Assembly (NCBI RefSeq): GCF_000420345.1
Contig: NZ_ATUT01000013.1
Coordinates: 1 to 62,737 of the forward strand
Source: Faecalicoccus pleomorphus DSM 20574
Lineage (GTDB): Bacteria; Bacillota_I; Bacilli_A; Erysipelotrichales; Erysipelotrichaceae
Reading direction: 5' to 3'
Length of the DNA: 62,737 nucleotides
In this document: one piece after another, positions 4,781 to 35,847 of the stretch
Numbering within the stretch: position 1 is the first letter of the stretch
How the letters are laid out: each line of letters opens with the position of its first letter
Notes under the pieces: generated by a model
What the model was told of the DNA's origin: nothing
The model's database searches: none
The model's input: only the letters and a program-made list of their open reading frames with translations
Translations under genes and position numbers: made by a program

Positions 4781-5935
4781 TTATCTTTTCACCCTGTACT
4801 TATTCTTTGTTGTATAAGAAATTGCCGTCAACAAACCCAAACCCTTAAATTTTAAGACAAAACTTCGAATCGTCGCATAGGCTGCATCTCCATAAGCCTT
4901 TTCTAATTCTTTCGTTGAGAATTCTTCCGTACCAAAATACGTTAAGACAAATTTCCATAACTTATCTTCTTTGTTTGTGATCTTCTTTTGATTGAGTGCT
5001 AATCGATATACAGACAATGTATCCTCCTGTAATGGCTGTTCCATGTTGTTATAAACATTATTTATAAAATACAACAAAAATGGTGTGACATCTATTGTAT
5101 GCGTATAGCGATAATTGTCTTCAATGGTTTGACAGGCATCATAATATTGTTTTCTTGTCTTTTCAATAAGGCTGGAAAAAGGAACAAACAATACTGATTG
5201 ATAGCCTCTTTGTACCAAAAACCAAAGATGTACTAATCTGGCCATCCTACCATTTCCATCAAACCATGGATGAACATAAGCGATATAAAAATGAATAATA
5301 CAAGCTTTCATCAGATCTTGTATATCATCTTTTTGATTTATATATTTAACCAATGACTTCATATACGAAGGAACTTGCTTGTAACTAATTCCGGTATGTT
5401 CTACTTTTGTTCCTACTACATAAACCGAATCATGATGATATAAATTGCCTTCCTTTAACTGATTTTCTTCATCGAGATATTTACCAATTGCCATCTTATA
5501 CAACTTATATATATTCTCTTCTGTGATCTTATTACCTGGATCTGAGATAAATTCCATTCCTTTTTTAAGGCCTTCAATTCTTTTTTCTTCTTCATTCTTA
5601 GATACCTGCCCTGATAAAATAGAGCGTACACTATCTCTGGAAAAATCAATATTTTCGATAGCGGAAGTCGCAATAATCTCTGTTTCCAAAGACTTTGCAC
5701 TATATAAACCACTTTGATTTTGAAACAATGTTCTAAGTGTAGATGTTTGAATCTTTAAAGGCTCTTCCAAAAACACCATAAAATTTCCCTGTGCATCTTC
5801 TAAAGGGAGCTTCTTATAAAATATAGAAAGCGTATCTAAATATTCCTGAAATGTATCTGGATATTTATTACTCATCTTTCTATAATCCATAAATTTTTTA
5901 TCGTGAAGAATCTCTAAGAATTTGGTAATTTCCAT
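4781..5935 (-). CDS. Fic-domain protein (likely AMP transferase) with N-terminal inhibitory motif
   Basis: Fic enzymes usually transfer AMP from ATP to hydroxyl side chains of target proteins. The catalytic motif HPWFDGNGRMAR (near residues 220-232) fits the HxFx(D/E)GNGRxxR consensus with Trp in place of Phe. TSAIEN near residues 89-94 fits the (S/T)xxxE(G/N) inhibitory helix, so this is a self-inhibited class II Fic protein. The C-terminal ~100 residues look like a winged-helix domain, so DNA binding is possible. I place the start at 5935 (MEITKF), because GGAGGT sits just upstream; an upstream in-frame TTG lies inside a palindrome. Stand-alone gene; no antitoxin partner is visible, consistent with an intramolecular inhibitor. 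Confidence 0.9.
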   Translation of the reverse strand: MEITKFLEILHDKKFMDYRKMSNKYPDTFQEYLDTLSIFYKKLPLEDAQGNFMVFLEEPLKIQTSTLRTLFQNQSGLYSAKSLETEIIATSAIENIDFSRDSVRSILSGQVSKNEEEKRIEGLKKGMEFISDPGNKITEENIYKLYKMAIGKYLDEENQLKEGNLYHHDSVYVVGTKVEHTGISYKQVPSYMKSLVKYINQKDDIQDLMKACIIHFYIAYVHPWFDGNGRMARLVHLWFLVQRGYQSVLFVPFSSLIEKTRKQYYDACQTIEDNYRYTHTIDVTPFLLYFINNVYNNMEQPLQEDTLSVYRLALNQKKITNKEDKLWKFVLTYFGTEEFSTKELEKAYGDAAYATIRSFVLKFKGLGLLTAISYTTKNKYRVKR

Positions 5936-5944
5936 ATAACCTCC

Positions 5945-5970
5945 GATACTAATTGATATCAATTAGTATC
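5945..5970. promoter_or_regulatory. Perfect 26-bp palindrome at the fic start
   Basis: GATACTAATTGAT is followed immediately by its exact reverse complement, a perfect 26-bp palindrome abutting the fic ribosome site. An AT-rich sequence with -10-like hexamers lies just upstream, so a bound dimer would block fic transcription. Autoregulation by the C-terminal winged helix of the Fic protein is the simplest guess. Confidence 0.6.
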
Positions 5971-7031: not shown

Positions 7032-7576
7032 TTTAAACCCTTATTTATAGAAAAACAAGCATTATTAGTGAGATATAGCTAACACAACAAAAAGCCTTTT
7101 TAGTCCTCTACATGGTACACCATTTTTAGAACAAACATCTCTTTCCATACGATAAGCATCATCGATAAATGATTCTGTTCTATATTAAGTAAAATCTTAT
7201 ACTTCTTATTGCATTTTCATACAATCATACATATAATGAAGATAAATAACCCCCCTTAAAATAATGAAAAAAAACACTTTATCATGGCTTATTAATTGAC
7301 AAACAATCATTATATATTGCTTCTGAATAGCTTTGGACGAGGTGGTTATCATGTATAGCTTACAAATCAAGAAAAATGAATATTAAACTTGTAAACATCC
7401 ACGAAAATTTGTTGATGATTCTATTGCTTATCCGCATACAATGAACGATGTGACAAATTGAGTCCACCTGGGTAAGCTTATGCCCCTATATCTTATTCTT
7501 TAGTACATTTTCAAAGCAAAGAATACAGAGAAGATAGGAACTTGCCAAATAATCGATGCAAAATGAGGTAAAGAAC
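7032..7576. other. Gene-poor stretch, 545 bp
   Basis: No convincing gene is seen. A short frame at 7351-7386 (GTGG-type ribosome site, MYSLQIKKNEY then stop) would continue through two stops toward 7500, which suggests decay or a leader peptide. The minus strand at 7080-7190 has a ~40-codon open stretch without a start. ATGGT/ACCAT arms with a two-base centre lie near 7112. None of these is assigned. Confidence 0.4.
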
Positions 7577-7933
7577 ATGAAAAAAGAATTTCAATCCGTT
7601 GTATTTGATGATGAGAATAAAAAATTATCCATTCTTATCGGAACTTGTGGAGATGTTGCTTATTCCGATATTGAAAAAGCTTCTATAGCCAATGAAGATG
7701 CCAAATTTAAGGGTAAATCCGCTCCGTTTGCACATCAAGTATTAGGGGGCGTTACATTTATGAGTATTGCGGCAGAACCCAGTCTGTATGTAGGCATCAA
7801 ATTAACATTAAAAGATCATTCTGTACGTGCTATCTATATTTCTGATATCAAAACGCAATTTAATACATCCATTTATCAAAAAGATAAAGAAGAAGCCGAC
7901 AAGATCTTACAGCTAATCCAGAGTAGAATCTAA
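7577..7933 (+). CDS. Small hypothetical protein, possibly PH-like
   Basis: A soluble protein of 118 residues with no signal peptide or membrane segment. Alternating short beta-type stretches (SVVFDDENKKLSILIG, SLYVGIKLTLKD, VRAIYISD) and a C-terminal helix (KEEADKILQLIQSRI) resemble the layout of bacterial PH-like domains, but I do not recognise the family with certainty. The start at 7577 (MKKEFQ) is chosen for the GAGGT site eight bases upstream. It is one of few plus-strand genes in this arm and has its own terminator. Confidence 0.65.
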   Translation: MKKEFQSVVFDDENKKLSILIGTCGDVAYSDIEKASIANEDAKFKGKSAPFAHQVLGGVTFMSIAAEPSLYVGIKLTLKDHSVRAIYISDIKTQFNTSIYQKDKEEADKILQLIQSRI

Positions 7934-8105: not shown

Positions 8106-8699
8106 TTAAAGATTGCTTCTTCTTAGTACCGTAATGACTTTTCCTTTAATATCGGAACGAGAAATGGGCCCAAAAATTCTAGAATCCTTTCCACCTTCCC
8201 GCAAATCGCACAATAGAAAATAACTGTCCGCCGGCACTTTCACAGGAAGTGAGATTCCATTCTCATAACGACCGGTTTCATAATAGATATCTGATTCAAT
8301 CATGATATCTCCATTGATTTTTAAATGGTTGTCTTCGGTAATATCAACTTCATCCCCTGCTCGTGCCACCACACGTCCAAGATAAGATTTTCCATCCACC
8401 TGATAAACAAGTACTTCACCTATATTATAGCTGGGATCTAGACGATAAAACAAAGATAGATCTCCCGCAAATATCTTAGGCTGCATATCCAAATTATTTA
8501 CGACATGGAGACCAAAGATCCAGCCAAACATGATGTATAAAATCAAAAGAAGAACCCCAGCTCGCATCAAAAAGAAACGAATTTCCTCCAACGCTCGTTT
8601 TTTAGGATTCTTTTTTGGCTTTTGAACCGGACTAGATTCTACGGATTCTTTTGGGAAATACTGTTGTACTTCTTTTCGCTTTGCCTTTCTAAGAGCCAT
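8106..8699 (-). CDS. sipA: SipA-type signal peptidase homologue lacking the Ser/Lys dyad (pilus assembly factor)
   Basis: A signal-peptidase-I fold of 197 residues. A basic N-terminal ~40 residues precedes one membrane helix (about 46-67), then box B as NNLDMQP and box D as YLGRVVARAGDEV, and later VPADSYFLLCD and DSRIFGPI. The catalytic Ser of box B is Asp71 and the Lys of box D is Gly108. From memory, streptococcal SipA of the FCT pilus islands has Asp48 and Gly85 at these places: the same two substitutions with the same 37-residue spacing. By analogy it helps pilus polymerisation instead of cleaving signal peptides. Last gene of the pilus operon; overlaps the minor pilin gene by 11 bases. 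Confidence 0.85.
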   Translation of the reverse strand: MALRKAKRKEVQQYFPKESVESSPVQKPKKNPKKRALEEIRFFLMRAGVLLLILYIMFGWIFGLHVVNNLDMQPKIFAGDLSLFYRLDPSYNIGEVLVYQVDGKSYLGRVVARAGDEVDITEDNHLKINGDIMIESDIYYETGRYENGISLPVKVPADSYFLLCDLREGGKDSRIFGPISRSDIKGKVITVLRRSNL

Positions 8700-9318
8700 T
8701 CGTTTCTCTCCTGGAACGTCTATATAGAACGACCATCAAGACAATCATGGATGTACATAACATGGCATACATTTGCTCATTCGTCCGTGTTGAAGTATCG
8801 GTTTTATCCTTCTTTTCACTGACATCAACTACATTTTGATGATTCATTTGATTGGTAAACGCAAAGTTAGATACCTTTTGCGTATCCCCTTCTTTATAGG
8901 CTACAGCATCGCATACCAACTCTTGGTTCGAATTATAAAAAGCATATACCGTAATATCATACACAGTAGGATCATAGCTCATATCCTGATTCGATCCAGC
9001 CTTTTGATAGAGACGATAATGATGCTCTCCCGCATTCTCAATCAAAATATTTTCTATCGAAGCTTTGCCTTCCTTAGTGGCAACGATGGATACCATCTGC
9101 ACAATCTTGTATGTGCCACCAGATTCCTTTTCCAGTATAAATTCATAGGTATCCTTGGGCAGTAAATCAGGATACTTCCCATCAACGGCTAGTTCAATAT
9201 CTAATTTTGTTTTTACCGTTTCCAAGGCTTGTAACGGTTGCGCAAACAAGCTAAAACAAAAAATACAAAAAAGAAAGCCAAACACAATAAAATGTTTCTT
9301 TTTTAAAAACATAATCAT
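8689..9318 (-). CDS. Minor (anchor) pilin, FctB-like
   Basis: A secreted protein of 209 residues. A signal peptide (hydrophobic ~10-27, likely cleaved after QALE or nearby) precedes a single beta-rich pilin domain, similar in pattern to FctA/FctB-type domains (TYEFILEKE, HHYRLYQKAG, YDITVYAFYN, FAFTNQ). Next come a polar linker rich in K/D/T, a C-terminal hydrophobic helix (MYAMLCTSMIVLMVVLY) and a basic tail RRSRRE. I see no LPxTG-like pentapeptide before the helix, only TRTNEQ, so sortase attachment is uncertain. It overlaps the sortase gene by four bases (ATGA). The start could also be two codons downstream. Confidence 0.75.
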   Translation of the reverse strand: MIMFLKKKHFIVFGFLFCIFCFSLFAQPLQALETVKTKLDIELAVDGKYPDLLPKDTYEFILEKESGGTYKIVQMVSIVATKEGKASIENILIENAGEHHYRLYQKAGSNQDMSYDPTVYDITVYAFYNSNQELVCDAVAYKEGDTQKVSNFAFTNQMNHQNVVDVSEKKDKTDTSTRTNEQMYAMLCTSMIVLMVVLYRRSRRETNGS

Positions 9319-10064
9319 GATTGAACCTCCTTTTCTGTTTCCGTTAATGTTCCAAATACAACAACCCTTCCATTGGTTGTAGCACTCATGCAGGTAGACA
9401 ATGCAATGATCTTATCCGTCGATTTGACTCCTTGATCTATATACGATGTGGCATTGGCTTTTACATACGTTTGAAACCCTTCCATATCTGACATCACACT
9501 AGCTAAGTTATAGATTCGAGTTTCATAAGCACTACATTCCAAAGCAGCATACAATTTCACCGAATAAGTTTTATCCGGTACATACAGTGTGCCCGTGGTA
9601 TGTTCTTTTAAATAGTTTAAATCCAACATTTTTGTCAGATCCCCAAACATAGCACCATTTTCCATATGATGACCATATGTCATGTTGTAAATATCTGAAA
9701 AATCCGATGCATTTTTGATTGACAGGAATATGGAACCGCTTAGTGCAAATTCACCAAACGGATCCTTATTTACATATTCCATATCATCTTTTCCCTGTAA
9801 TACAGGATAATCAATATGTGTATTATCGATGGTAATCCAAGCTTTCACATCCGGATTGAGTTCTCGTAAAGCATCGAAGCCTAAGCCATTTTCCTGTCCG
9901 GGCTTATACTTTAATAACTCATCGGATATAAAGGCATTATGATTGATACGATAAATATCCCATAAAGAATATAGACCATACGTTAGAAGCAATATGATCA
10001 ATATAGCCGTCAGAAGCGATACAATTTTATTCCCAAATCGGGCGATTCTTTCTGCCAGCAACAT
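9315..10064 (-). CDS. Class B sortase (pilin polymerase)
   Basis: A membrane-anchored cysteine transpeptidase of 249 residues. It has an N-terminal membrane helix (about 13-34), the class B-type start of the core (LRELNPDVKAWITIDNTHIDYPVLQGKDD), catalytic His in MTYGHHM, catalytic Cys in ALSTCM and Arg in TNGRVVVFGTL. Class B sortases act as pilin polymerases in streptococcal FCT-3/4 islands. It lies between major and minor pilin genes and is the only sortase in the operon, so it should link the LPPTG pilin and perhaps the VPNTG tip; a housekeeping sortase elsewhere may do the wall attachment. Confidence 0.92.
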   Translation of the reverse strand: MLLAERIARFGNKIVSLLTAILIILLLTYGLYSLWDIYRINHNAFISDELLKYKPGQENGLGFDALRELNPDVKAWITIDNTHIDYPVLQGKDDMEYVNKDPFGEFALSGSIFLSIKNASDFSDIYNMTYGHHMENGAMFGDLTKMLDLNYLKEHTTGTLYVPDKTYSVKLYAALECSAYETRIYNLASVMSDMEGFQTYVKANATSYIDQGVKSTDKIIALSTCMSATTNGRVVVFGTLTETEKEVQS

Positions 10065-10088
10065 AAAGTTTACTTTTTAGCGTTCGAA

Positions 10089-11297
10089 TTAAGCTTCGTT
10101 TTTACGTTTTTTGGCAAACAATGCGATCAAGGCAGCACCCAATCCTACCATAGCTGCAAATGGAGCGATAGTCATTAAGATACCTGTAGGAGGTAAGATA
10201 GAATCATTTTCTGTTTTGTTGGTAATTACTACATCGGTTGCATCGTTATTGGCATTGTTAGATCCTACACCGCTATATGTCCACTTCTTAGCTCCGTCAT
10301 CATTTGACATTTCTTTTGCTGCGTCATCTACAGTAATAGTCGGCAATTTAAATCCTTCTACATGATCTTCGGCGATGTCAATCGTTGCACCTACCGGCAA
10401 ACCTTGAATTTTGATTGTGTCATTTTTCGCCAATGTTACAGTATGAGTATTGTTACCGTTTGTTGTTTCTACCGTAGTTGCCGGATCACTATTCTTTTGA
10501 TATTTATAAGTACCGTTGTCATCCGTTGGCAATGTGATAGTAAAAGAATAACCAGCATTGTTTGTTAAAACGCCATCTACTTTTTTCGTTAATGTTACAT
10601 CATATGTAGAGTACACACTACTCTTTGTTGGATCTACATTCCCATCTGTTTTCTCTTCCGTAAAACCGGCATCTTTTCCAGTAGAATCACTTGTTTTACT
10701 AACAACATAGCCTTTAATTTTATAGGCATCACCATCTTGTTCTACATATACATCGACATTACGTGTTTTGTTCGCTGTGGTTTGTGGAAGTGCATTTGTA
10801 AGCTGAGAATTGTCGTTAACCGTATAATCAGCTTCTGTAATCACATAACGATAGATACCTGCTTCAGTAAATGTAATTCCACTAAAATCCAATGCAATAT
10901 CCTTAGTAACCTTACCCTGACTTGCTGAATCATCTTGGGTAAATACAACATTACCTGTAGTCGCTGTACCGTTAACTTTAACCAAATTTCCATCTTTACC
11001 GGCTTTTACCTGGAACACTTGATCTCCTTTACCTTCTTGTTTAGATGTAAAAGTTCCTGCTTCACCATTGCTAACAGTGTAGCCAAAAGTAACGTTTGGT
11101 GTTTCTGGTGTATAATTCGCATCATCTAAATCTCTGACTGTCAAATCTTTTTTAAGATTTAATGTACTTTCCTCTGTCTCATTCAGACCATTTGAATTGG
11201 CATCAGTCCCTACAGCATATACAGGGTGTGCAAACGGTGCCACTACCATGGCTGTTAAAGTACTAACAGCCAAACCTTTTTGAAATCTTTTGTTCAT
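10089..11297 (-). CDS. Major pilin, FctA-like, LPPTG-anchored
   Basis: 402 residues: a signal peptide ending near VYA-VG (residues ~28-30), two beta-sandwich pilin domains (about 45-235 and 236-365), then the sorting signal LPPTG, a hydrophobic helix and KKRKNEA. The second domain begins YDVTLTKKVDG, typical of pilin domains in which a Lys forms an intramolecular isopeptide bond with a C-terminal Asn (VVITNKT). The first contains NLKKDLTV and IYRYVITEAD, the latter like the FctA/Spy0128 signature. A strong AAAGGAG ribosome site suits a highly made subunit. It sits between the tip adhesin and the sortase genes. Confidence 0.9.
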   Translation of the reverse strand: MNKRFQKGLAVSTLTAMVVAPFAHPVYAVGTDANSNGLNETEESTLNLKKDLTVRDLDDANYTPETPNVTFGYTVSNGEAGTFTSKQEGKGDQVFQVKAGKDGNLVKVNGTATTGNVVFTQDDSASQGKVTKDIALDFSGITFTEAGIYRYVITEADYTVNDNSQLTNALPQTTANKTRNVDVYVEQDGDAYKIKGYVVSKTSDSTGKDAGFTEEKTDGNVDPTKSSVYSTYDVTLTKKVDGVLTNNAGYSFTITLPTDDNGTYKYQKNSDPATTVETTNGNNTHTVTLAKNDTIKIQGLPVGATIDIAEDHVEGFKLPTITVDDAAKEMSNDDGAKKWTYSGVGSNNANNDATDVVITNKTENDSILPPTGILMTIAPFAAMVGLGAALIALFAKKRKNEA

Positions 11298-11323
11298 TTT
11301 CTTTCTCCTTTGACTTTCTTACT

Positions 11324-14308
11324 TTACAATCCTCGTCTTTTACGGCGTATTAACAAGAATATCCCCGTAGCCAACACAGCATCCAATAGTATGGCCAGTG
11401 TAGGGCCCATTGGTACATCCAGTCCCGTATTCGGAACTTTGACCTTAGGACGATACACATACACAACAGTTTGATCCCCTTCTTGGACCGTACCCTTTGC
11501 CGGGGCCGAGTCCTCTTTCATATCGACAAACACATAATCCGTAAATTCTTCCTTTGTCGATTCATATTCGGTACCTTCCAGTCCGTTATCAACCAGGGTA
11601 ATCTCATTCGTATCCGGTAATAAATTTCCTTCTGTATCTTCATATCGAACTTTTACTGTGCCTCGTGTTCGTACATATGTAAATGTCAGAGAAGTCGATG
11701 TATCTGTAAAGGTTGTATATCCACCCCTAGGCGATGCATCATCAGAAAGTACCAGTTTATACTTATTGCCATTGTATTCTAGCTTATCCGGTGCGAATTT
11801 CTTTTCTCCGCTTTCCGTTAAGCTGGAATCACTACCATGAATAGAAACAAACGATCCAACCGTCGCTGTTCCATCTTCTTGTTTGCTGTCTTCGTTTTCT
11901 TTATATACGTGATTGACAACAAACGCATCTGCAGCTTGCTGTTCGGTACCGATATATTCCGCTTCCAAGCGCACACTATCAAAGTTAACGTTTCCAAGCG
12001 TATCGCTGATACGACCAAACAATGTTTCGTTTCGAATATCAATATCTTCTCCCGGAGCAACAGAAGCAATCTTCTCACCTTTCACCCCGTTACTGACCTT
12101 ATATAATCCCCAACCGACAAACTGAGAGTTTTCGCGAGTTGGAACTTCTAACGGTACATGGATAATCGGATTTCCCTCCACATCATACATAAACCGTTCA
12201 TTTCCATCGGCCTTAGATGTTGCCGCATCTGGGAAATCCGAAGGCGTTTGAACCGTTCCTCCATCCAGATAATAATCAACCGGCAAATGTAGTAGTTCTG
12301 CTTCTACACCAATGACATTCATTCCTCCGACAGAAACATATCCGTTCGTTCGATCATTTTCTATGGAATTTCCTATTTTTACAAACACAGGTACATTCAC
12401 AAAGAAATTGCCGGGCTCGGCATATCGATCATCATATTTTGCCTCTCTGGAATTAGGCACAAGGTGTACATCACTAATCGCCATATCTCGATACATGGGC
12501 TTGGTATATCCATTCTTCACTTTTCCTGCAATGGAAGTTAATGGATCATCTAGTTTTTCTCGGTTAAAATCTTTATCCCATTTTGTATCTACACCATTCA
12601 CATATCGATCATTTGAATTTGCGGTGGTAAACCAAGAAGAATCACTTTTACGCCAATCAGCCGGATCATTGACCGTGGAGGTTTTGTTTTGACCAGAACC
12701 TGTTTCATTCACAACAGCAGCATGTACCCATGTATCTTCCACACCATAGTTTAGATACATTCCGACTTTTGACTGATTCGTTGATGCCCATTCAGGTATA
12801 GCCTCAATATCCGTTGGTGCATTATCAATTTGAATATCATAGGCTAAACGAAGTGAATTATGCTGCCCTTTATTGTAAGCTGAGGTGTCATCCCAACCGT
12901 CACCATCTTTATACTCATTAAATGTATTTAAGCTGCCACGATAGTTATCTGATTTGGCATCCGTAATCGTGATCGTTACCGTTGCCCCGGCTAGCGGACC
13001 ATGTTGTACATATGTCTGTGTTTTTTGTCCGATGACATGCCTTTTTATAATATCGTTGTACCAATTGTAAAAACCATTGTCACGATTCTTTTCGCTCCAA
13101 TAACTCGATCCCCAATAGGGTTCCCATCCTTGTCTTCGCCCAAAAGTGGAAACGAGTGTGTATTTATTCGCATAGCCAGGGCGACTCTCCCAACTCGCAT
13201 TTACATCTTCATAGTACGGTCGTTTATAGGACGCCTCTTTCGATGTATTTTCATAAGCAGACGGCCCAAAACGAGCAAACGGTTGCGGCGCTCCAAACGG
13301 TTGTCCATTGATCCATAGAATAGACATGAAGGTAGAATATACAGCAGGTTTATTTCCGCCCCAATAAGTCATATCATGATAGGCTTTGAGGTGAACTGTA
13401 CTACCATACGAAGAAGTTTCTGTACTTTCTGTAATTTGTTCACCAACCGAATTTTTGTTGGCAATATCCTGATTGGTAATATTTCCCGTAACAATTTCTG
13501 TTTGGGCATAGAAATAATCTTGTCGAACACACGCACGTCCATAACTGCCATTATCAGTTGCTTCCCCTATATTACAGGCAGGAAGCCCCGACATCTTCCA
13601 ATCATCGGCATGTTTGCCATCATTACTTGCCTTTGCCGTGATAGTCAGAGTTTCTTTGACTTCACTTCGGATAGGAATATTTAAATCTTTTGAAGTAGTA
13701 ATCTTGTAACGATATACTGTTCTTTTAGTTGTTGACACATCCTGATCGAAAACAACTTCCTTTGTCTCAATTATGGGTTTGGCATTTCGTGGAACAGATA
13801 CCGTAAAATATCCAACAGCACTGCCATTCACTAACTCTAGATGTGGTGGCCCGGTGACAATAATATCTTTGCCATCTTCGGGTTGATATGTAACTGTTAC
13901 TGTTTTCGCCAGATCTAAATATTCAAAATAAATCTTAGAAGCAGTATCTGTACTTAGATAAGAGCGTTCCAAAGCATCTACACTTTCATTGATTCGCTTA
14001 ATGTAAGCACGTCCACCTCTGGATTCAATACTTTGAATCGCTTCTTTTTTATTGGTTTCAGAATCAATCACATAAGCCCGGATAAATCGTTTCCCTTCTA
14101 TTTTCGGTGCAGTGGCTTCGGTAATATCTCCCCCTGCAAATGAAACCGTTTGCCCTAACGAATTTCCATCTAAATCTACGGCGGATACTTCTACATCCTT
14201 GCTTTGCGCATATACCGTCAAATCCGGTGGTACACGAGCTAATATTGTGGTTAATGATAAAAAAACAGCCAGAGAAAAAATCCAGCATTTTTTTAATCCT
14301 CTTCTCAT
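11324..14308 (-). CDS. Large pilus tip/adhesin protein, VPNTG-anchored
   Basis: 994 residues with a signal peptide (cleavage near VYA-QS, residue ~35). A large central region (~200-800) matches no fold I can name; it is rich in Trp, Tyr and Asn. A MucBP-like repeat lies at about 880-955 (GTVKVRYEDTEGNLLPDT, then VVYVYRP). The C-terminal sorting signal is VPNTG with a hydrophobic helix and RRKRRGL. Two cysteines near residues 245 and 260 (LPACNIG, GRACVRQ) are the only ones in the mature part, suggesting a disulfide or reactive site. First gene of the pilus operon, the place of Cpa in streptococcal FCT islands, whose tip protein also has a VPxTG signal. Confidence 0.8.
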   Translation of the reverse strand: MRRGLKKCWIFSLAVFLSLTTILARVPPDLTVYAQSKDVEVSAVDLDGNSLGQTVSFAGGDITEATAPKIEGKRFIRAYVIDSETNKKEAIQSIESRGGRAYIKRINESVDALERSYLSTDTASKIYFEYLDLAKTVTVTYQPEDGKDIIVTGPPHLELVNGSAVGYFTVSVPRNAKPIIETKEVVFDQDVSTTKRTVYRYKITTSKDLNIPIRSEVKETLTITAKASNDGKHADDWKMSGLPACNIGEATDNGSYGRACVRQDYFYAQTEIVTGNITNQDIANKNSVGEQITESTETSSYGSTVHLKAYHDMTYWGGNKPAVYSTFMSILWINGQPFGAPQPFARFGPSAYENTSKEASYKRPYYEDVNASWESRPGYANKYTLVSTFGRRQGWEPYWGSSYWSEKNRDNGFYNWYNDIIKRHVIGQKTQTYVQHGPLAGATVTITITDAKSDNYRGSLNTFNEYKDGDGWDDTSAYNKGQHNSLRLAYDIQIDNAPTDIEAIPEWASTNQSKVGMYLNYGVEDTWVHAAVVNETGSGQNKTSTVNDPADWRKSDSSWFTTANSNDRYVNGVDTKWDKDFNREKLDDPLTSIAGKVKNGYTKPMYRDMAISDVHLVPNSREAKYDDRYAEPGNFFVNVPVFVKIGNSIENDRTNGYVSVGGMNVIGVEAELLHLPVDYYLDGGTVQTPSDFPDAATSKADGNERFMYDVEGNPIIHVPLEVPTRENSQFVGWGLYKVSNGVKGEKIASVAPGEDIDIRNETLFGRISDTLGNVNFDSVRLEAEYIGTEQQAADAFVVNHVYKENEDSKQEDGTATVGSFVSIHGSDSSLTESGEKKFAPDKLEYNGNKYKLVLSDDASPRGGYTTFTDTSTSLTFTYVRTRGTVKVRYEDTEGNLLPDTNEITLVDNGLEGTEYESTKEEFTDYVFVDMKEDSAPAKGTVQEGDQTVVYVYRPKVKVPNTGLDVPMGPTLAILLDAVLATGIFLLIRRKRRGL

Positions 14309-16483: not shown

Positions 16484-17398
16484 TTAAATTCCCGTAATCT
16501 CGTGAAAAGCATGCTGGGCAGCGATGGCACCATCGTTGGTAGCCGTCACAACCTGACGAAGTTCTTTTTGGATGACATCGCCGGCCGCATATAAACCTTT
16601 GATCGATGTTTCCATGTGTTCATTGACTTTGACATAGCCTCTTTCATCTAAAACGCCCAAACCTTCCAAACAAGAAGTGATCGGATCTTGTCCGATATAA
16701 GGGAAGATTCCCTGGCAGGCAACTGTCTGTTTTTCTTTGGTATCTACATTTTCCAAAACAATACCGGAAACTTTACCATTTTCACTCAAGATTTCCTTGG
16801 GAATATGTTTTACGATGACCTTGATTTTTTCATTGTTTTGAATCTGATCCTGAATTCTCTTTTCTGCCCGGAATACATCTCTTCGAATCACAATCGTTAC
16901 TGAATTGGCAAACTGTGTTAAATACAAACTTTCTTCCAAAGCGGAATTACCGCCACCGATCACAACTACATCTTTTCCTCTGAAAAAGGCTCCATCACAT
17001 ACCGCACAGAAAGATACACCACGTCCGATGTTGTCCTGTTCGCCCGGTATGTTCAATAATCGTTCTTTCGTTCCCGTCGCAACGATCACGGCCTTTCCTT
17101 CTACAACCGTACCATCACTTAAATACACTTTTTTGTCAGCATCTACTTTTTCGACATCGCCATAGGCATATTCAGCTCCAAAGGATGTCGATTGTTCAAA
17201 CATCTGTGTTGCCAGATCGACACCTGAAAGTTCCTTTACTCCTGGATAGTTAGAAATCAAATGCGTTTTGATCAGCTTTCCTCCCGGAGCACCGTTATCT
17301 AATAATAATGTCTTTAAACCGGCACGAGATCCATATACACTGGCCGCCATTCCGGCTGGCCCGGCTCCTATGATTACCAAATCGTATTGTCGCTCCAT
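16484..17398 (-). CDS. trxB: Thioredoxin reductase
   Basis: NADPH-dependent flavoprotein of 304 residues that reduces thioredoxin. It shows the FAD dinucleotide fold GAGPAGMAA at residues 11-19, the redox pair in CAVCDG (~134-139), the NADPH fold GGGNSALEE and the C-terminal FAD motif YAAGDV. Its start overlaps the end of the lgt-ppaX fusion by 25 bases and its AAGGAGG ribosome site is inside that gene, so translation is coupled. It ends the uvrA-hprK-lgt/ppaX-trxB unit, an order close to the hprK-lgt-ppaX-trxB neighbourhood of Bacillus. Confidence 0.96.
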   Translation of the reverse strand: MERQYDLVIIGAGPAGMAASVYGSRAGLKTLLLDNGAPGGKLIKTHLISNYPGVKELSGVDLATQMFEQSTSFGAEYAYGDVEKVDADKKVYLSDGTVVEGKAVIVATGTKERLLNIPGEQDNIGRGVSFCAVCDGAFFRGKDVVVIGGGNSALEESLYLTQFANSVTIVIRRDVFRAEKRIQDQIQNNEKIKVIVKHIPKEILSENGKVSGIVLENVDTKEKQTVACQGIFPYIGQDPITSCLEGLGVLDERGYVKVNEHMETSIKGLYAAGDVIQKELRQVVTATNDGAIAAQHAFHEITGI

Positions 17399-18840
17399 GC
17401 TCGTTCCTCCTTACATAATTGAATTAATTCTCGAAGATCTGTGATCTGTTTACAAGGATGCGCCTGTTTTTGTTGTTCCAACTGTCTATCATCGTTACTA
17501 AACCCTACCGAATAAGCTGCCATATTTTTGGCACACACGATATCTGTCACATTATCTCCGACATATATTACATCATCATGTCCCACTTTTAACAAGTTAC
17601 ATGCTTCTAAGAGTCCGGATGGACTTGGTTTGGGTTCTGGAAGCTGCTCTTTTCCTAAAACCACATCAAAATACGGTTCTAAATGAATGGCCTTTAATCC
17701 CATTTTCACAATACCGATTCGCTTATTGGACACAACAGCCATTTGATAGCCCTGTTCATGTAATGTCGATACCGTTTCAAAGGCATTGGGCATCGGTTTC
17801 AATAAAGTATCGTGTAATTTGATATTGATTTTCTGATACAAGGCGATCACATCATCCAGTTCTTCTTTTTTAAAGTATTTTAAAAAGGTTTCTTCCAAGG
17901 TAGGCCCGAAGAAAGAATACAGTTCCTCTTGTGACAGCTGATGTTCCGATTTACGGATTCGAAATACCTCTTTAAACGTTTCAAAGACCAGATGTTGAGA
18001 ATCCTGTAAGGTTCCATCCAGATCAAAAAGGATCACCGGCTTATGATTCCAGTGAAAGGCTTTATGTAAAAGACCACTTAAACCGAATATGCCAAACAAC
18101 ACAATGGCCAAAGAAACAAGCTGTGAGACTCGAAAAGCACCAATCATCAAAGAATCAGTACGCAAGCCTTCGACTAAAAAGCGAAGAACTCCATACCAGA
18201 TACAGTACATAAAGGCACAATCGCCTCGTCTTTTATAAAATCGTTTACGAAAGATAAAATAAATAAACAAAAAGCCTAAAATATTCCCGGCACTTTCATA
18301 CAGAAAGGTCGGTTCACGATATGCCCCTTGAATATACATCTGATCTTTTATAAAAGATGGAAATAACGCATAGTAGCTTTCCGGTACGACCTTTCCAAAA
18401 GCTTCCTGGTTCATAAAATTGCCCCAACGTCCGAAAGCCTGCGCCACCATAACACCAGGCATGATACAGTCTGCCATTCGCAAAGCACTGATCCTCTGTC
18501 GCTTAAAGTAGTAGATGCTGTAAAGAACCCCTACGATCAAACCTCCATAGATGGCGAGCCCACCATTCCAGATCGCAATGATCTGATCAGGATGCGCACT
18601 GTAGAAATCCCACTCAAAGATTACATAGTACAAACGTGCGCCGATAATGGATAAAGCCATCATTGGAATTACATAATCTTCTAAAATCGTTTTACTGTAA
18701 CCCCATTTCTTCATGGTTTTTTGCGCCAGAAAGTAGGCGGCCAGTACACCGGTCAAAATCAAAACGGCATACCATGTGACATGAAGCCCTCCTATAGAAA
18801 GAATGATCTTTGTATCAGGAAAGAGCTGCATTGTCTTCAT
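17374..18840 (-). CDS. lgt: Fusion of prolipoprotein diacylglyceryl transferase (Lgt) and a PpaX-like HAD phosphatase
   Basis: A 488-residue protein joining two enzymes usually encoded separately. Residues 1-~262 are Lgt, the membrane enzyme that adds diacylglycerol to lipoprotein precursors: about seven membrane segments, HVTWYAVL, the signature GRWGNFMNQEAFG, and VEGLRTDSL. Residues ~270-480 are a HAD phosphatase: nucleophile motif FDLDGTLQD, VVSNKR, the Lys in PEPKPSP, and VGDNVTD. In Bacillus, ppaX follows hprK and lgt and hydrolyses pyrophosphate released by HPr-kinase/phosphorylase. The frame is continuous with no stop at the junction, so the phosphatase would be tethered to the inner membrane face. 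Overlaps hprK by 26 bases. Confidence 0.9.
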   Translation of the reverse strand: MKTMQLFPDTKIILSIGGLHVTWYAVLILTGVLAAYFLAQKTMKKWGYSKTILEDYVIPMMALSIIGARLYYVIFEWDFYSAHPDQIIAIWNGGLAIYGGLIVGVLYSIYYFKRQRISALRMADCIMPGVMVAQAFGRWGNFMNQEAFGKVVPESYYALFPSFIKDQMYIQGAYREPTFLYESAGNILGFLFIYFIFRKRFYKRRGDCAFMYCIWYGVLRFLVEGLRTDSLMIGAFRVSQLVSLAIVLFGIFGLSGLLHKAFHWNHKPVILFDLDGTLQDSQHLVFETFKEVFRIRKSEHQLSQEELYSFFGPTLEETFLKYFKKEELDDVIALYQKINIKLHDTLLKPMPNAFETVSTLHEQGYQMAVVSNKRIGIVKMGLKAIHLEPYFDVVLGKEQLPEPKPSPSGLLEACNLLKVGHDDVIYVGDNVTDIVCAKNMAAYSVGFSNDDRQLEQQKQAHPCKQITDLRELIQLCKEERAWSDNTIW

Positions 18841-33829: not shown

Positions 33830-35644
33830 TTACTCCACGGTTACTGACTTGGCAAGATTTCTAGGTTTATCGACATCACAGCCTTTTAACACCGCTCCAT
33901 AATAGGCAAAAAGCTGTAAAAGGATAGCGGCTGGTATAGCTGCCAAAGCCGGGTGTACATCCGGAATGCGCAGGACTTTTTGAAATGCATGGGTATCCTG
34001 ATACTGAGTCGTAATCAGTATAACGTTAGCTCCTCTGGCGATGGTTTCTTCAATGTTGGAAATCGTCTTAGAAGCAACTTCTTCCTGTGTCGCAAGCGCT
34101 ATGACCACCGTTCCTTTATCAATTAAGGCAATCGGTCCATGTTTAAGTTCGCCGGCAATATAAGCATCCGCATGGACATAGGAAACCTCTTTTAGCTTTA
34201 AAGCGCCTTCCACAACACTGAAATAATCCAGTCTTCGTCCGATAAAATACGCATCTTTTTGATCTTTTAAACATTGTGCATAATCTTTGACAATTTCTTG
34301 TTGCGCCAACATATCCTTTGTGATTTCCGGAATTCTTTTCAAATCTGCCATCAGTTTAGATACATCTTTAGGCTGGCATCCTAATTTCTCACTCAATGCG
34401 ATCATCAGACATACCAAGAGTACAAGCTGTGTCGTATAAGCTTTTGTGCTCGCCACTGCGATTTCCGGTCCGGCACAAGTATAAAGCGTACAATCCGACT
34501 TACGAGCCAGTGAAGACCCCAATACATTGACAATAGATAACGTCTTTGCCTGTTTTTCCTTTGCCAACTGTAAAGCTGCCAGGGTATCAGCTGTTTCTCC
34601 GGATTGCGACACAAAAATACATAGCGTATCCGAATTCAAATAGTAATTCCCATACCGAAATTCACTGGCTGCCAACGCAAAGGAAGGACAGGCTGGAACC
34701 CATTGACGAAACAGATCTTGCGCAAATGAAGCTGCATTTAAAGCAGTTCCACATGCCAAAAAGTAAACTCTTTCCAGCTTTTCCCAGTTGATATTGATTT
34801 CTTTCAGCTCATCCATTCTCACATCATTATCCACTCGACCACGCAAGGTTTCTGATAGAACATAAGGCTGCTCATGAATCTCTTTTTCCATGAAAGTGTC
34901 ATAACCACCTTTTTGCGCTGCCTGCAGATCGTAAGGAATATGCATCCATTTTTGCTTCTGAAGTTCTCCCTGAAAATCATAGACTTGTATTCCATCGGCT
35001 TTTAACACCGCAATTTGTCCATCCTCTAAACTCAAAATATCTTTGGTGTATTCTAAAACAGCCGGTATATCACTGGCACAAAAACTACCAGATGCACAAT
35101 GTCCGATAATCATAGGGCTTTCCTTTTTGGCAACATAAATCGTATCAGGATCTTGTACAGACACCACACACAAGGCAAAACTTCCTTCTAAATAACGCAC
35201 TGCCTTTTGTAGTGCCGCAAATAGATTTCCTCGATCATAGTAGTCGATCAAATGCACGATGACTTCACTATCGGTTTGCGATAAAAAAGGATATCCCTGT
35301 CGAATCAACTCTTTTTTGATGGCCTGATAATTTTCGATAATACCATTATGTACGATAGAAATCGTGTTCTTCGCATTCGTATGTGGATGTGAATTAAGAT
35401 TACTGGGAATGCCATGCGTAGCCCAGCGCGTATGACCAATCCCGGTTTTCTGTGGATGTGACTCTCCCTTCAACAAGTCTTCCAGCTGACACAAACGCCC
35501 TTTACTTTTAAAGGTATATAATCCATTATCATCTACTAAAGTCACACCGGCTGAATCGTATCCCCGGTATTCGAGTTTGTTTAAACCCTGCATTAAAAAT
35601 GGTAAAGCTTCCCCTTTACCCACGAAACCTGTAATTCCGCACAT
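33830..35644 (-). CDS. glmS: Glutamine-fructose-6-phosphate aminotransferase
   Basis: Makes glucosamine-6-phosphate from fructose-6-phosphate and glutamine, the entry to peptidoglycan and teichoic-acid precursors. The 604 residues start MCGITGF, so Cys is N-terminal after Met removal and is the glutaminase nucleophile; two SIS isomerase domains follow (FLACGTALNAA, FVSQSGETADT; YFIGRRLDYF) and the end DKPRNLAKSVTVE is typical. The start at 35644 is fixed by that Cys and by GGAGGA upstream. The mRNA leader is a glmS ribozyme. Confidence 0.98.
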   Translation of the reverse strand: MCGITGFVGKGEALPFLMQGLNKLEYRGYDSAGVTLVDDNGLYTFKSKGRLCQLEDLLKGESHPQKTGIGHTRWATHGIPSNLNSHPHTNAKNTISIVHNGIIENYQAIKKELIRQGYPFLSQTDSEVIVHLIDYYDRGNLFAALQKAVRYLEGSFALCVVSVQDPDTIYVAKKESPMIIGHCASGSFCASDIPAVLEYTKDILSLEDGQIAVLKADGIQVYDFQGELQKQKWMHIPYDLQAAQKGGYDTFMEKEIHEQPYVLSETLRGRVDNDVRMDELKEININWEKLERVYFLACGTALNAASFAQDLFRQWVPACPSFALAASEFRYGNYYLNSDTLCIFVSQSGETADTLAALQLAKEKQAKTLSIVNVLGSSLARKSDCTLYTCAGPEIAVASTKAYTTQLVLLVCLMIALSEKLGCQPKDVSKLMADLKRIPEITKDMLAQQEIVKDYAQCLKDQKDAYFIGRRLDYFSVVEGALKLKEVSYVHADAYIAGELKHGPIALIDKGTVVIALATQEEVASKTISNIEETIARGANVILITTQYQDTHAFQKVLRIPDVHPALAAIPAAILLQLFAYYGAVLKGCDVDKPRNLAKSVTVE

Positions 35645-35676
35645 GAAAAAAATCCTCCATTTTCTATTCACTTCAT

Positions 35677-35816
35677 GGAGGATACCGAATGGATTTGTTC
35701 AATCTTCACAGACTGTTTTTGTCCATTGTTTCAGGCCGTATCCAGCCTCCAGGTCACCCGCCGAATCTTTCGAAAAACCTGGTCCTCGTCAACTGTAAAA
35801 TTACAGTCCTGGCGCT
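35677..35816 (-). ncRNA. glmS ribozyme-riboswitch
   Basis: On the minus strand the leader carries the conserved core: AGCGCCAGGACTG at the cleavage site (between A35816 and G35815), AGTTGACGAGGA, TTTCGAAAGATTCGGCGG, then the P3/P4 arms, closing with GGATAC pairing with GTATCC near 35680. Glucosamine-6-phosphate triggers self-cleavage and mRNA decay, so product represses glmS. It directly precedes the glmS ribosome site. Confidence 0.95.
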
Positions 35817-35847
35817 TTTCTTTGTATAGACCCCATGAATGCATTCT

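What the first reader, a model, noticed from the sequence alone, without database searches (positions are those of the whole stretch)
8106..14308. FCT-like sortase pilus island outside streptococci, in complete gene order
Seen: tip protein (VPNTG), two-domain major pilin (LPPTG), class B sortase, minor pilin and a SipA homologue in one tight operon with overlaps. Known: Streptococcus pyogenes FCT-3/4 islands carry Cpa (VPxTG), FctA, a class B sortase, FctB and SipA. The match in parts, including sortase class and the tip's VPxTG signal, suggests one shared assembly pathway spread across Bacillota classes.
Basis: partly seen in the sequence, partly recalled or inferred. Interest (0 to 1): 0.75.

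Follow-up and report, generated by a model that had tools for sequence, protein, structure and literature searches.

The report
Streptococcal-type pilus genes in gut bacterium
This five-gene cluster almost certainly builds a hair-like adhesive fibre by the same covalent assembly route as the group A streptococcal (FCT-2/3/4) pilus; it belongs to a family of such clusters that is common in Clostridia and their relatives and was already known outside streptococci, so it is real and informative but not a new kind of system.

Summary
Window 8106-14308 (minus strand) is one tight five-gene operon: tip protein (VPNTG), two-domain shaft pilin (LPPTG), class B sortase, basal pilin, SipA. Four parts are homologues of S. 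pyogenes FCT-2/3/4 parts: SipA (4n31, E 4e-30, with the same Ser-to-Asp and Lys-to-Gly dyad loss), sortase (Spy0129, E 4e-39), FctB (E 3e-11) and shaft pilin (family profile on Spy0128 E 1.5e-44; model Z 19.4 over 269 residues). The tip is not demonstrably Cpa: no thioester, VWA or Cna domain was found. Its N-terminal ~150 residues resemble tips of other such islands, a MucBP domain lies near its C-terminus, and the middle has no relative found.

"Complete gene order" is wrong: S. pyogenes and the commonest relatives read tip-sipA-fctA-srtB-fctB; here sipA is last. The basal pilin also lacks LPXTG (KTDTST where most relatives have KTGD).

Sister species have an empty site, so the island is accessory. 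The sortase's nearest relatives found are in Oribacterium (Lachnospiraceae), as are SipA's best matches. Such islands are widespread in Clostridia, and C. perfringens VR-10B is an experimentally shown non-streptococcal example. Verdict: new member of a known kind.

The parts
11324..14308 (-). Tip protein, 994 aa: signal peptide, N-terminal domain shared with tips of other islands (about aa 36-190), orphan middle, MucBP (aa 884-953), sorting signal VPNTG
   Evidence: no relative of aa 190-840 found
10089..11297 (-). Shaft (major) pilin, FctA/Spy0128 type, two domains, sorting signal LPPTG; predicted acceptor Lys208; D2 isopeptide triad Lys238-Glu310-Asn360; D1 has Glu214 where most relatives have Asn
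9315..10064 (-). Class B pilus-type sortase (Spy0129-like)
8689..9318 (-). Basal pilin, FctB type; conserved Lys148 (predicted acceptor); no LPXTG, KTDTST where most relatives have KTGD
8106..8699 (-). SipA, signal-peptidase-like assembly factor without catalytic dyad (Asp71, Gly108)

Best explanation
The island encodes a complete SipA/class-B-sortase pilus of the FCT-2/3/4 kind. Shown by sequence or model: a surface tip protein, a Spy0128-type shaft pilin, an FctB-type base, a pilus-type class B sortase and a dead-dyad SipA in one operon, at a site that is empty in sister species. Inferred from the characterised streptococcal system: all three pilins are exported and held in the membrane; the sortase cuts between Thr and Gly of VPNTG (tip) and LPPTG (shaft) and joins the tip to the first shaft subunit and each shaft subunit (T371) to Lys208 of the next, with SipA needed as a non-enzymatic assembly factor; joining the last shaft subunit to Lys148 of the FctB-like protein ends growth. 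Anchoring is the least certain step: FctB lacks the usual motif and no class A sortase was found in the genome (only this SrtB, an orphan SrtB and a class C sortase), so the base is either anchored through an atypical class-B-type signal (KTDT) or held by its membrane helix. The tip, which carries a MucBP domain, probably binds a host or mucus ligand (inference).
For: Sortase: TIGR03064 above cut-off; PDB 3psq E 4e-39; family profile puts 4y4q and 3psq far above other SrtBs (252.8 and 237.7 bits against 158). SipA: 4n31 E 3.6e-30 against a true signal peptidase at 0.008; dyad Asp/Gly as in S. pyogenes; 71 of 72 island SipAs lack the dyad; the genome has its own true SPase I. Shaft: profile on Spy0128 E 1.5e-44, model Z 19.4, rmsd 3.6, 269 residues. 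Base: 8k6t and 3klq E 3e-11, Lys148 conserved in 38 of 44. Co-occurrence: 34 of 79 loci hold all four. Empty site in three sister species. VR-10B precedent with fibres seen by TEM (PMC8088525).
Against: No experiment on this organism. The tip has no demonstrable Cpa or PitA homology over its body. FctB lacks the sorting Gly. D1 of the shaft pilin lacks the usual isopeptide Asn. sipA is out of its usual place. The 45-row profile includes the window and relatives chosen by similarity to it.
Confidence: 0.88

Rival explanations
1. An FCT-type island that still polymerises pilin, but the fibre is not wall-anchored (released, or held only by the membrane helix) because FctB has lost its sorting signal; the island is decaying or specialised.
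For: Window FctB has KTDTST where most relatives have KTGD; no NCBIfam anchor model matches it; D1 isopeptide Asn is Glu.
Against: All five ORFs are intact with tight spacing. Gly-less FctBs recur in about ten islands with at least six changes on the sortase tree, some reading NPKTSD/ID/ND, which resembles class B signals such as NPQTN, so loss of Gly need not mean loss of anchoring.
Confidence: 0.3
2. A class B sortase operon that anchors single surface proteins (as in iron or heme uptake) rather than building a polymer.
For: Most characterised class B sortases anchor single proteins (PMC3019223); no fibre has been seen here.
Against: Shaft pilin has the Spy0128 fold and a lysine at the acceptor position conserved in 35 of 45; SipA and FctB homologues are present; no heme-uptake domain was found in the five proteins.
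Confidence: 0.05
3. A mosaic: assembly core (SrtB and SipA, perhaps shaft and base) acquired together from a Lachnospiraceae-type source, with the tip taken from another source or exchanged later.
For: SrtB is sister to Oribacterium (98/92) and Oribacterium gives the best SipA matches, while the tip shares only about 150 N-terminal residues with tips of other islands and has MucBP where several related tips have DUF7601. The genome has another mucin-binding-type surface protein beside a class C sortase. Compatible with the best explanation.
Against: Tips evolve fast; divergence alone could explain the lack of matches. The SipA tree does not resolve the window's exact place.
Confidence: 0.45

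Closest known systems
Streptococcus pyogenes FCT-2/3/4 pilus (Cpa, SipA, FctA/Spy0128, class B sortase SrtC/Spy0129, FctB)
   Same: Homologous SipA with the same dyad replacements, class B pilus sortase, two-domain shaft pilin and FctB; VPxTG-type tip signal; one operon
   Different: sipA last instead of second; tip without a detectable Cpa domain; shaft signal LPPTG; FctB without LPXTG; no class A sortase found in the genome
Clostridium perfringens VR-10B (NE) pilus: CnaA, signal peptidase, FimA, class B sortase, FimB (PMC8088525)
   Same: Same five kinds of parts outside streptococci; the base pilin is thought to be a class B substrate; a second SrtB is in the genome
   Different: Its order appears to be tip-signal peptidase-shaft-sortase-base (inferred from mutant names 572/574/576); Cna-type collagen-binding tip; no direct sequence comparison made here
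Pneumococcal PI-2 and GBS PI-2b pili (PitA/PitB, SipA)
   Same: SipA-dependent; PitB found by the shaft profile (E 1e-29) and fold (Z 15)
   Different: PitA tip has a VWA domain; the window tip has none detected. Window shaft is nearer to the S. pyogenes pilins by fold
Uncharacterised islands in Oribacterium (L063, L064, L065)
   Same: Closest SrtB found (54-57% identity) and, in L063 and L064, the best SipA matches (49-53%)
   Different: Order tip-sipA-fctA-srtB-fctB (no sipA called in L065); a second srtB in L063 and L065; much larger tip (about 1,800-1,900 aa) with no detectable similarity to this one

Membership tests
FCT-2/3/4-type (SipA / class B sortase) pilus island | Class B sortase of the pilus type | tested here: met
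   grouped with Spy0129 and apart from B. anthracis SrtB and the genome's orphan SrtB (rows were picked by similarity to the query)
FCT-2/3/4-type (SipA / class B sortase) pilus island | SipA: signal-peptidase fold without the Ser-Lys dyad | tested here: met
FCT-2/3/4-type (SipA / class B sortase) pilus island | Two-domain Spy0128/FctA shaft pilin with C-terminal sorting signal | tested here: met
   LPPTG
FCT-2/3/4-type (SipA / class B sortase) pilus island | FctB-type basal pilin | tested here: met
FCT-2/3/4-type (SipA / class B sortase) pilus island | LPXTG-type anchor on the basal pilin | tested here: not met
   KTDTST. Some other islands lack it too, so it is variable in the family
FCT-2/3/4-type (SipA / class B sortase) pilus island | Gene order tip-sipA-fctA-srtB-fctB | tested here: not met
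   Window order tip-fctA-srtB-fctB-sipA; order varies among homologous islands, so it describes the streptococcal loci rather than defining the family
FCT-2/3/4-type (SipA / class B sortase) pilus island | Covalent pilin ladder and fibres on cells | not testable with these tools
   Needs immunoblot and electron microscopy
Cpa (S. pyogenes pilus tip adhesin) | Thioester domain and Cna/Spy0128-like C-terminal domain | tested here: inconclusive
   No such domain found by Pfam, NCBIfam or PDB sequence search; fold could not be predicted (pLDDT 30), so absence of the fold is not shown
Spy0128-type intramolecular isopeptide bonds | Lys/Glu/Asn triads in both domains | tested here: inconclusive
   D2 triad present; D1 has Glu214 in the Asn column; bonds themselves not testable
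Class C sortase pilus | Class C sortase in the island | tested here: not met
   The island sortase is class B; the genome's class C sortase lies elsewhere

The most novel reading that the evidence does not exclude
The base of this pilus is attached by a class B sortase through a Gly-less signal (KTDT; NPKTSD/ID/ND in other islands), probably by the orphan SrtB, giving a pilus system run wholly by class B sortases, with such signals arising several times in the family. More broadly, streptococcal FCT and PI-2 loci would be separate acquisitions from a large pool in Clostridia and relatives.
Probability: 0.3. Interest if true: 0.5.

Novelty: new member of a known kind. Interest (0 to 1): 0.33.

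Why it matters
It shows that the class-B-sortase/SipA pilus, usually described as a streptococcal oddity, is a widespread surface system of Bacillota, many of them gut or rumen organisms. Nearest relatives of the sortase and SipA cross class boundaries, and the site is empty in sister species, so the island is gained or lost readily. The sequence diversity gathered here bears on an open question, what SipA does: dyad loss is near-universal (71 of 72 island SipAs) while the fold is kept. The Gly-less basal pilins make the anchoring step directly testable.

Tried and rejected
Tip fold: single-sequence AlphaFold gave pLDDT 30, so no fold search was run on it. Relatives of the tip body: none in 316 order genomes (only MucBP-region matches), 392 phylum genomes, plasmids, phages or viral contigs. 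PDB sequence search of the tip: noise only. The organism of PDB 4y4q could not be confirmed, so rejection of one clade with 3psq (AU p 0.0097) is only suggestive of two streptococcal origins; that pair was also chosen after a first tree had been seen. Mobile-element signs: no tRNA in the window, no integrase among the five genes. Promoter and terminator scans did not clearly exceed shuffles. Repeats around the island looked chance-level. Literature searches found no description of SipA/SrtB pili in Lachnospiraceae or Erysipelotrichia; that library holds open-licence papers only, so this is weak evidence of novelty. One malformed call, one region too long (66), one bad reference (90) and one malformed report (95) gave nothing.

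Full report
WHAT IS THERE. Five co-directional genes on the minus strand, 14308 down to 8106: tip (994 aa), shaft pilin (402), class B sortase (249), basal pilin (209) and SipA (197). Spacing is 26 and 24 bp, then overlaps of 4 and 11 bp. They lie between a 125-aa gene without a Pfam family and a cyclic-di-AMP receptor gene.

IDENTITY OF THE PARTS. The sortase passes the NCBIfam class B equivalog model. Its two best solved structures are 4y4q and 3psq; 3psq is Spy0129, the S. pyogenes pilus sortase (entry-to-protein link from my own knowledge; structure described in PMC3019223). The last gene matches S. pyogenes SipA at E 3.6e-30 and a true signal peptidase only at 0.008. It has Asp and Gly where signal peptidases have the catalytic Ser and Lys, the replacements reported for SipA (PMC4049620). 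In a survey of island SipAs, 71 of 72 lack the dyad, and the genome has a separate true signal peptidase I. The basal pilin matches FctB structures at E 3e-11.

SHAFT PILIN. On its own it hits no solved pilin by sequence. A profile of 45 island homologues, which includes the window, matches Spy0128 over both domains (E 1.5e-44), other T-antigens and PitB. Its AlphaFold model (pLDDT 82) aligns to Spy0128 with Z 19.4, rmsd 3.6, over 269 residues (Foldseek agrees). Lys238, Glu310 and Asn360 of domain 2 are invariant or nearly so; domain 1 has Lys50 and Glu155, but Glu214 where 31 of 45 have Asn. Lys208 lies where Spy0128 has its acceptor Lys161.

TIP. It has VPNTG and a MucBP domain but no thioester, VWA or Cna domain. 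Large surface proteins of related islands include ones with VWA and/or DUF7601, the domain also found as domain 2 of the shaft pilin. A profile built from such proteins, without the window, finds the N-terminal part of this tip (about residues 36-180) at about 1e-6. So it is a plausible member of a broad tip group, not shown to be Cpa. Residues ~190-840 have no relative found.

ORDER. S. pyogenes strains with sipA read cpa-sipA-fctA-srtC-fctB (PMC4049620). The commonest order in the named collection is also SipA-FctA-SrtB-FctB (22 loci, 27 with a second SrtB). The window reads tip-FctA-SrtB-FctB-SipA. The only comparable locus (L099) ends in a protein with an intact dyad, so probably not a SipA. 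The title's 'complete gene order' is therefore not right.

DISTRIBUTION AND HISTORY. In the same order, strong SipA matches occur in a minority of genomes, with varied gene orders. All three sister species examined lack SipA and have an empty site: the cyclic-di-AMP receptor gene lies 31 bp from the 125-aa gene in two of them, and next to perR in the third, which also lacks the 125-aa gene. Among named genomes the best sortase matches are in Lachnospiraceae, Oscillospiraceae, Anaerococcus and others; 34 of 79 loci hold homologues of all four. The window sortase is sister to Oribacterium (98/92). Oribacterium also gives the best SipA matches, although the SipA tree does not resolve the exact place. 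Shaft pilin and FctB diverge too much to place. 3psq falls inside this mixture. Records of the window's own genome may be left out of the named collection, so 'nearest' means nearest found.

HOW IT WORKS. By homology with the streptococcal pathway (PMC7900414, PMC3019223, PMC4049620), the sortase links tip, shaft and base by isopeptide bonds with SipA as a non-enzymatic helper. Anchoring is the open step. Of 56 FctBs, 47 were scored as having TG in the motif region and nine as lacking it, including the window; L047 was mis-scored as having it (KTSDPT), so about ten lack it, with at least six changes of state on the sortase tree. Several Gly-less motifs read NPKTSD/ID/ND, resembling class B signals such as NPQTN. 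The genome shows three sortases: this one, an orphan class B and a class C; no class A was found. In C. perfringens the base pilin is likewise thought to be a class B substrate (PMC8088525).

KNOWN OR NEW. A class-B-sortase plus signal-peptidase pilus outside streptococci, with synteny to streptococcal loci and fibres seen by TEM, was published for C. perfringens (PMC8088525). This island is a new member of that kind, with a displaced sipA, an unusual tip and a Gly-less base.

Noticed in passing
window 8689-9318; L042, L047, L083, L118, L123, L134, L137, L138, L140: FctB-type basal pilins repeatedly lack the Gly of the sorting motif (KTDTST, KTED, KTSD, NPKTSD, NPKTID, NPKTND, NTND, QTDG, NTAS); at least six changes of state on the sortase tree.
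   Followed up: partly
L002 1465-2205 (-) and L001 1375-2166 (-), other contigs of the same genome: Orphan class B sortase next to murG and nagB, and a class C sortase beside an LPSTG surface protein with Muc_B2/MucBP_2 domains; no class A sortase was found.
   Followed up: partly
window 17374-18840 (-): Lgt (prolipoprotein diacylglyceryl transferase) appears fused to a HAD-type phosphatase; a homologue of the same 488-aa length is in sister species (about 75-80% identity).
   Followed up: no
window 7556-7933 (+): 125-aa protein with no Pfam family; a repeated paralogue family (7 matches in G002, 5 in G001, none in G003) that flanks the island.
   Followed up: no
window 4781-5962 (-): Fic-domain protein between rubrerythrin and a PTS gene; no match at that place in the three sister genomes, so another accessory insertion.
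   Followed up: no
window 35676-35827 (-): glmS ribozyme (Rfam RF00234, 89 bits) upstream of the ORF at 33830-35671.
   Followed up: no
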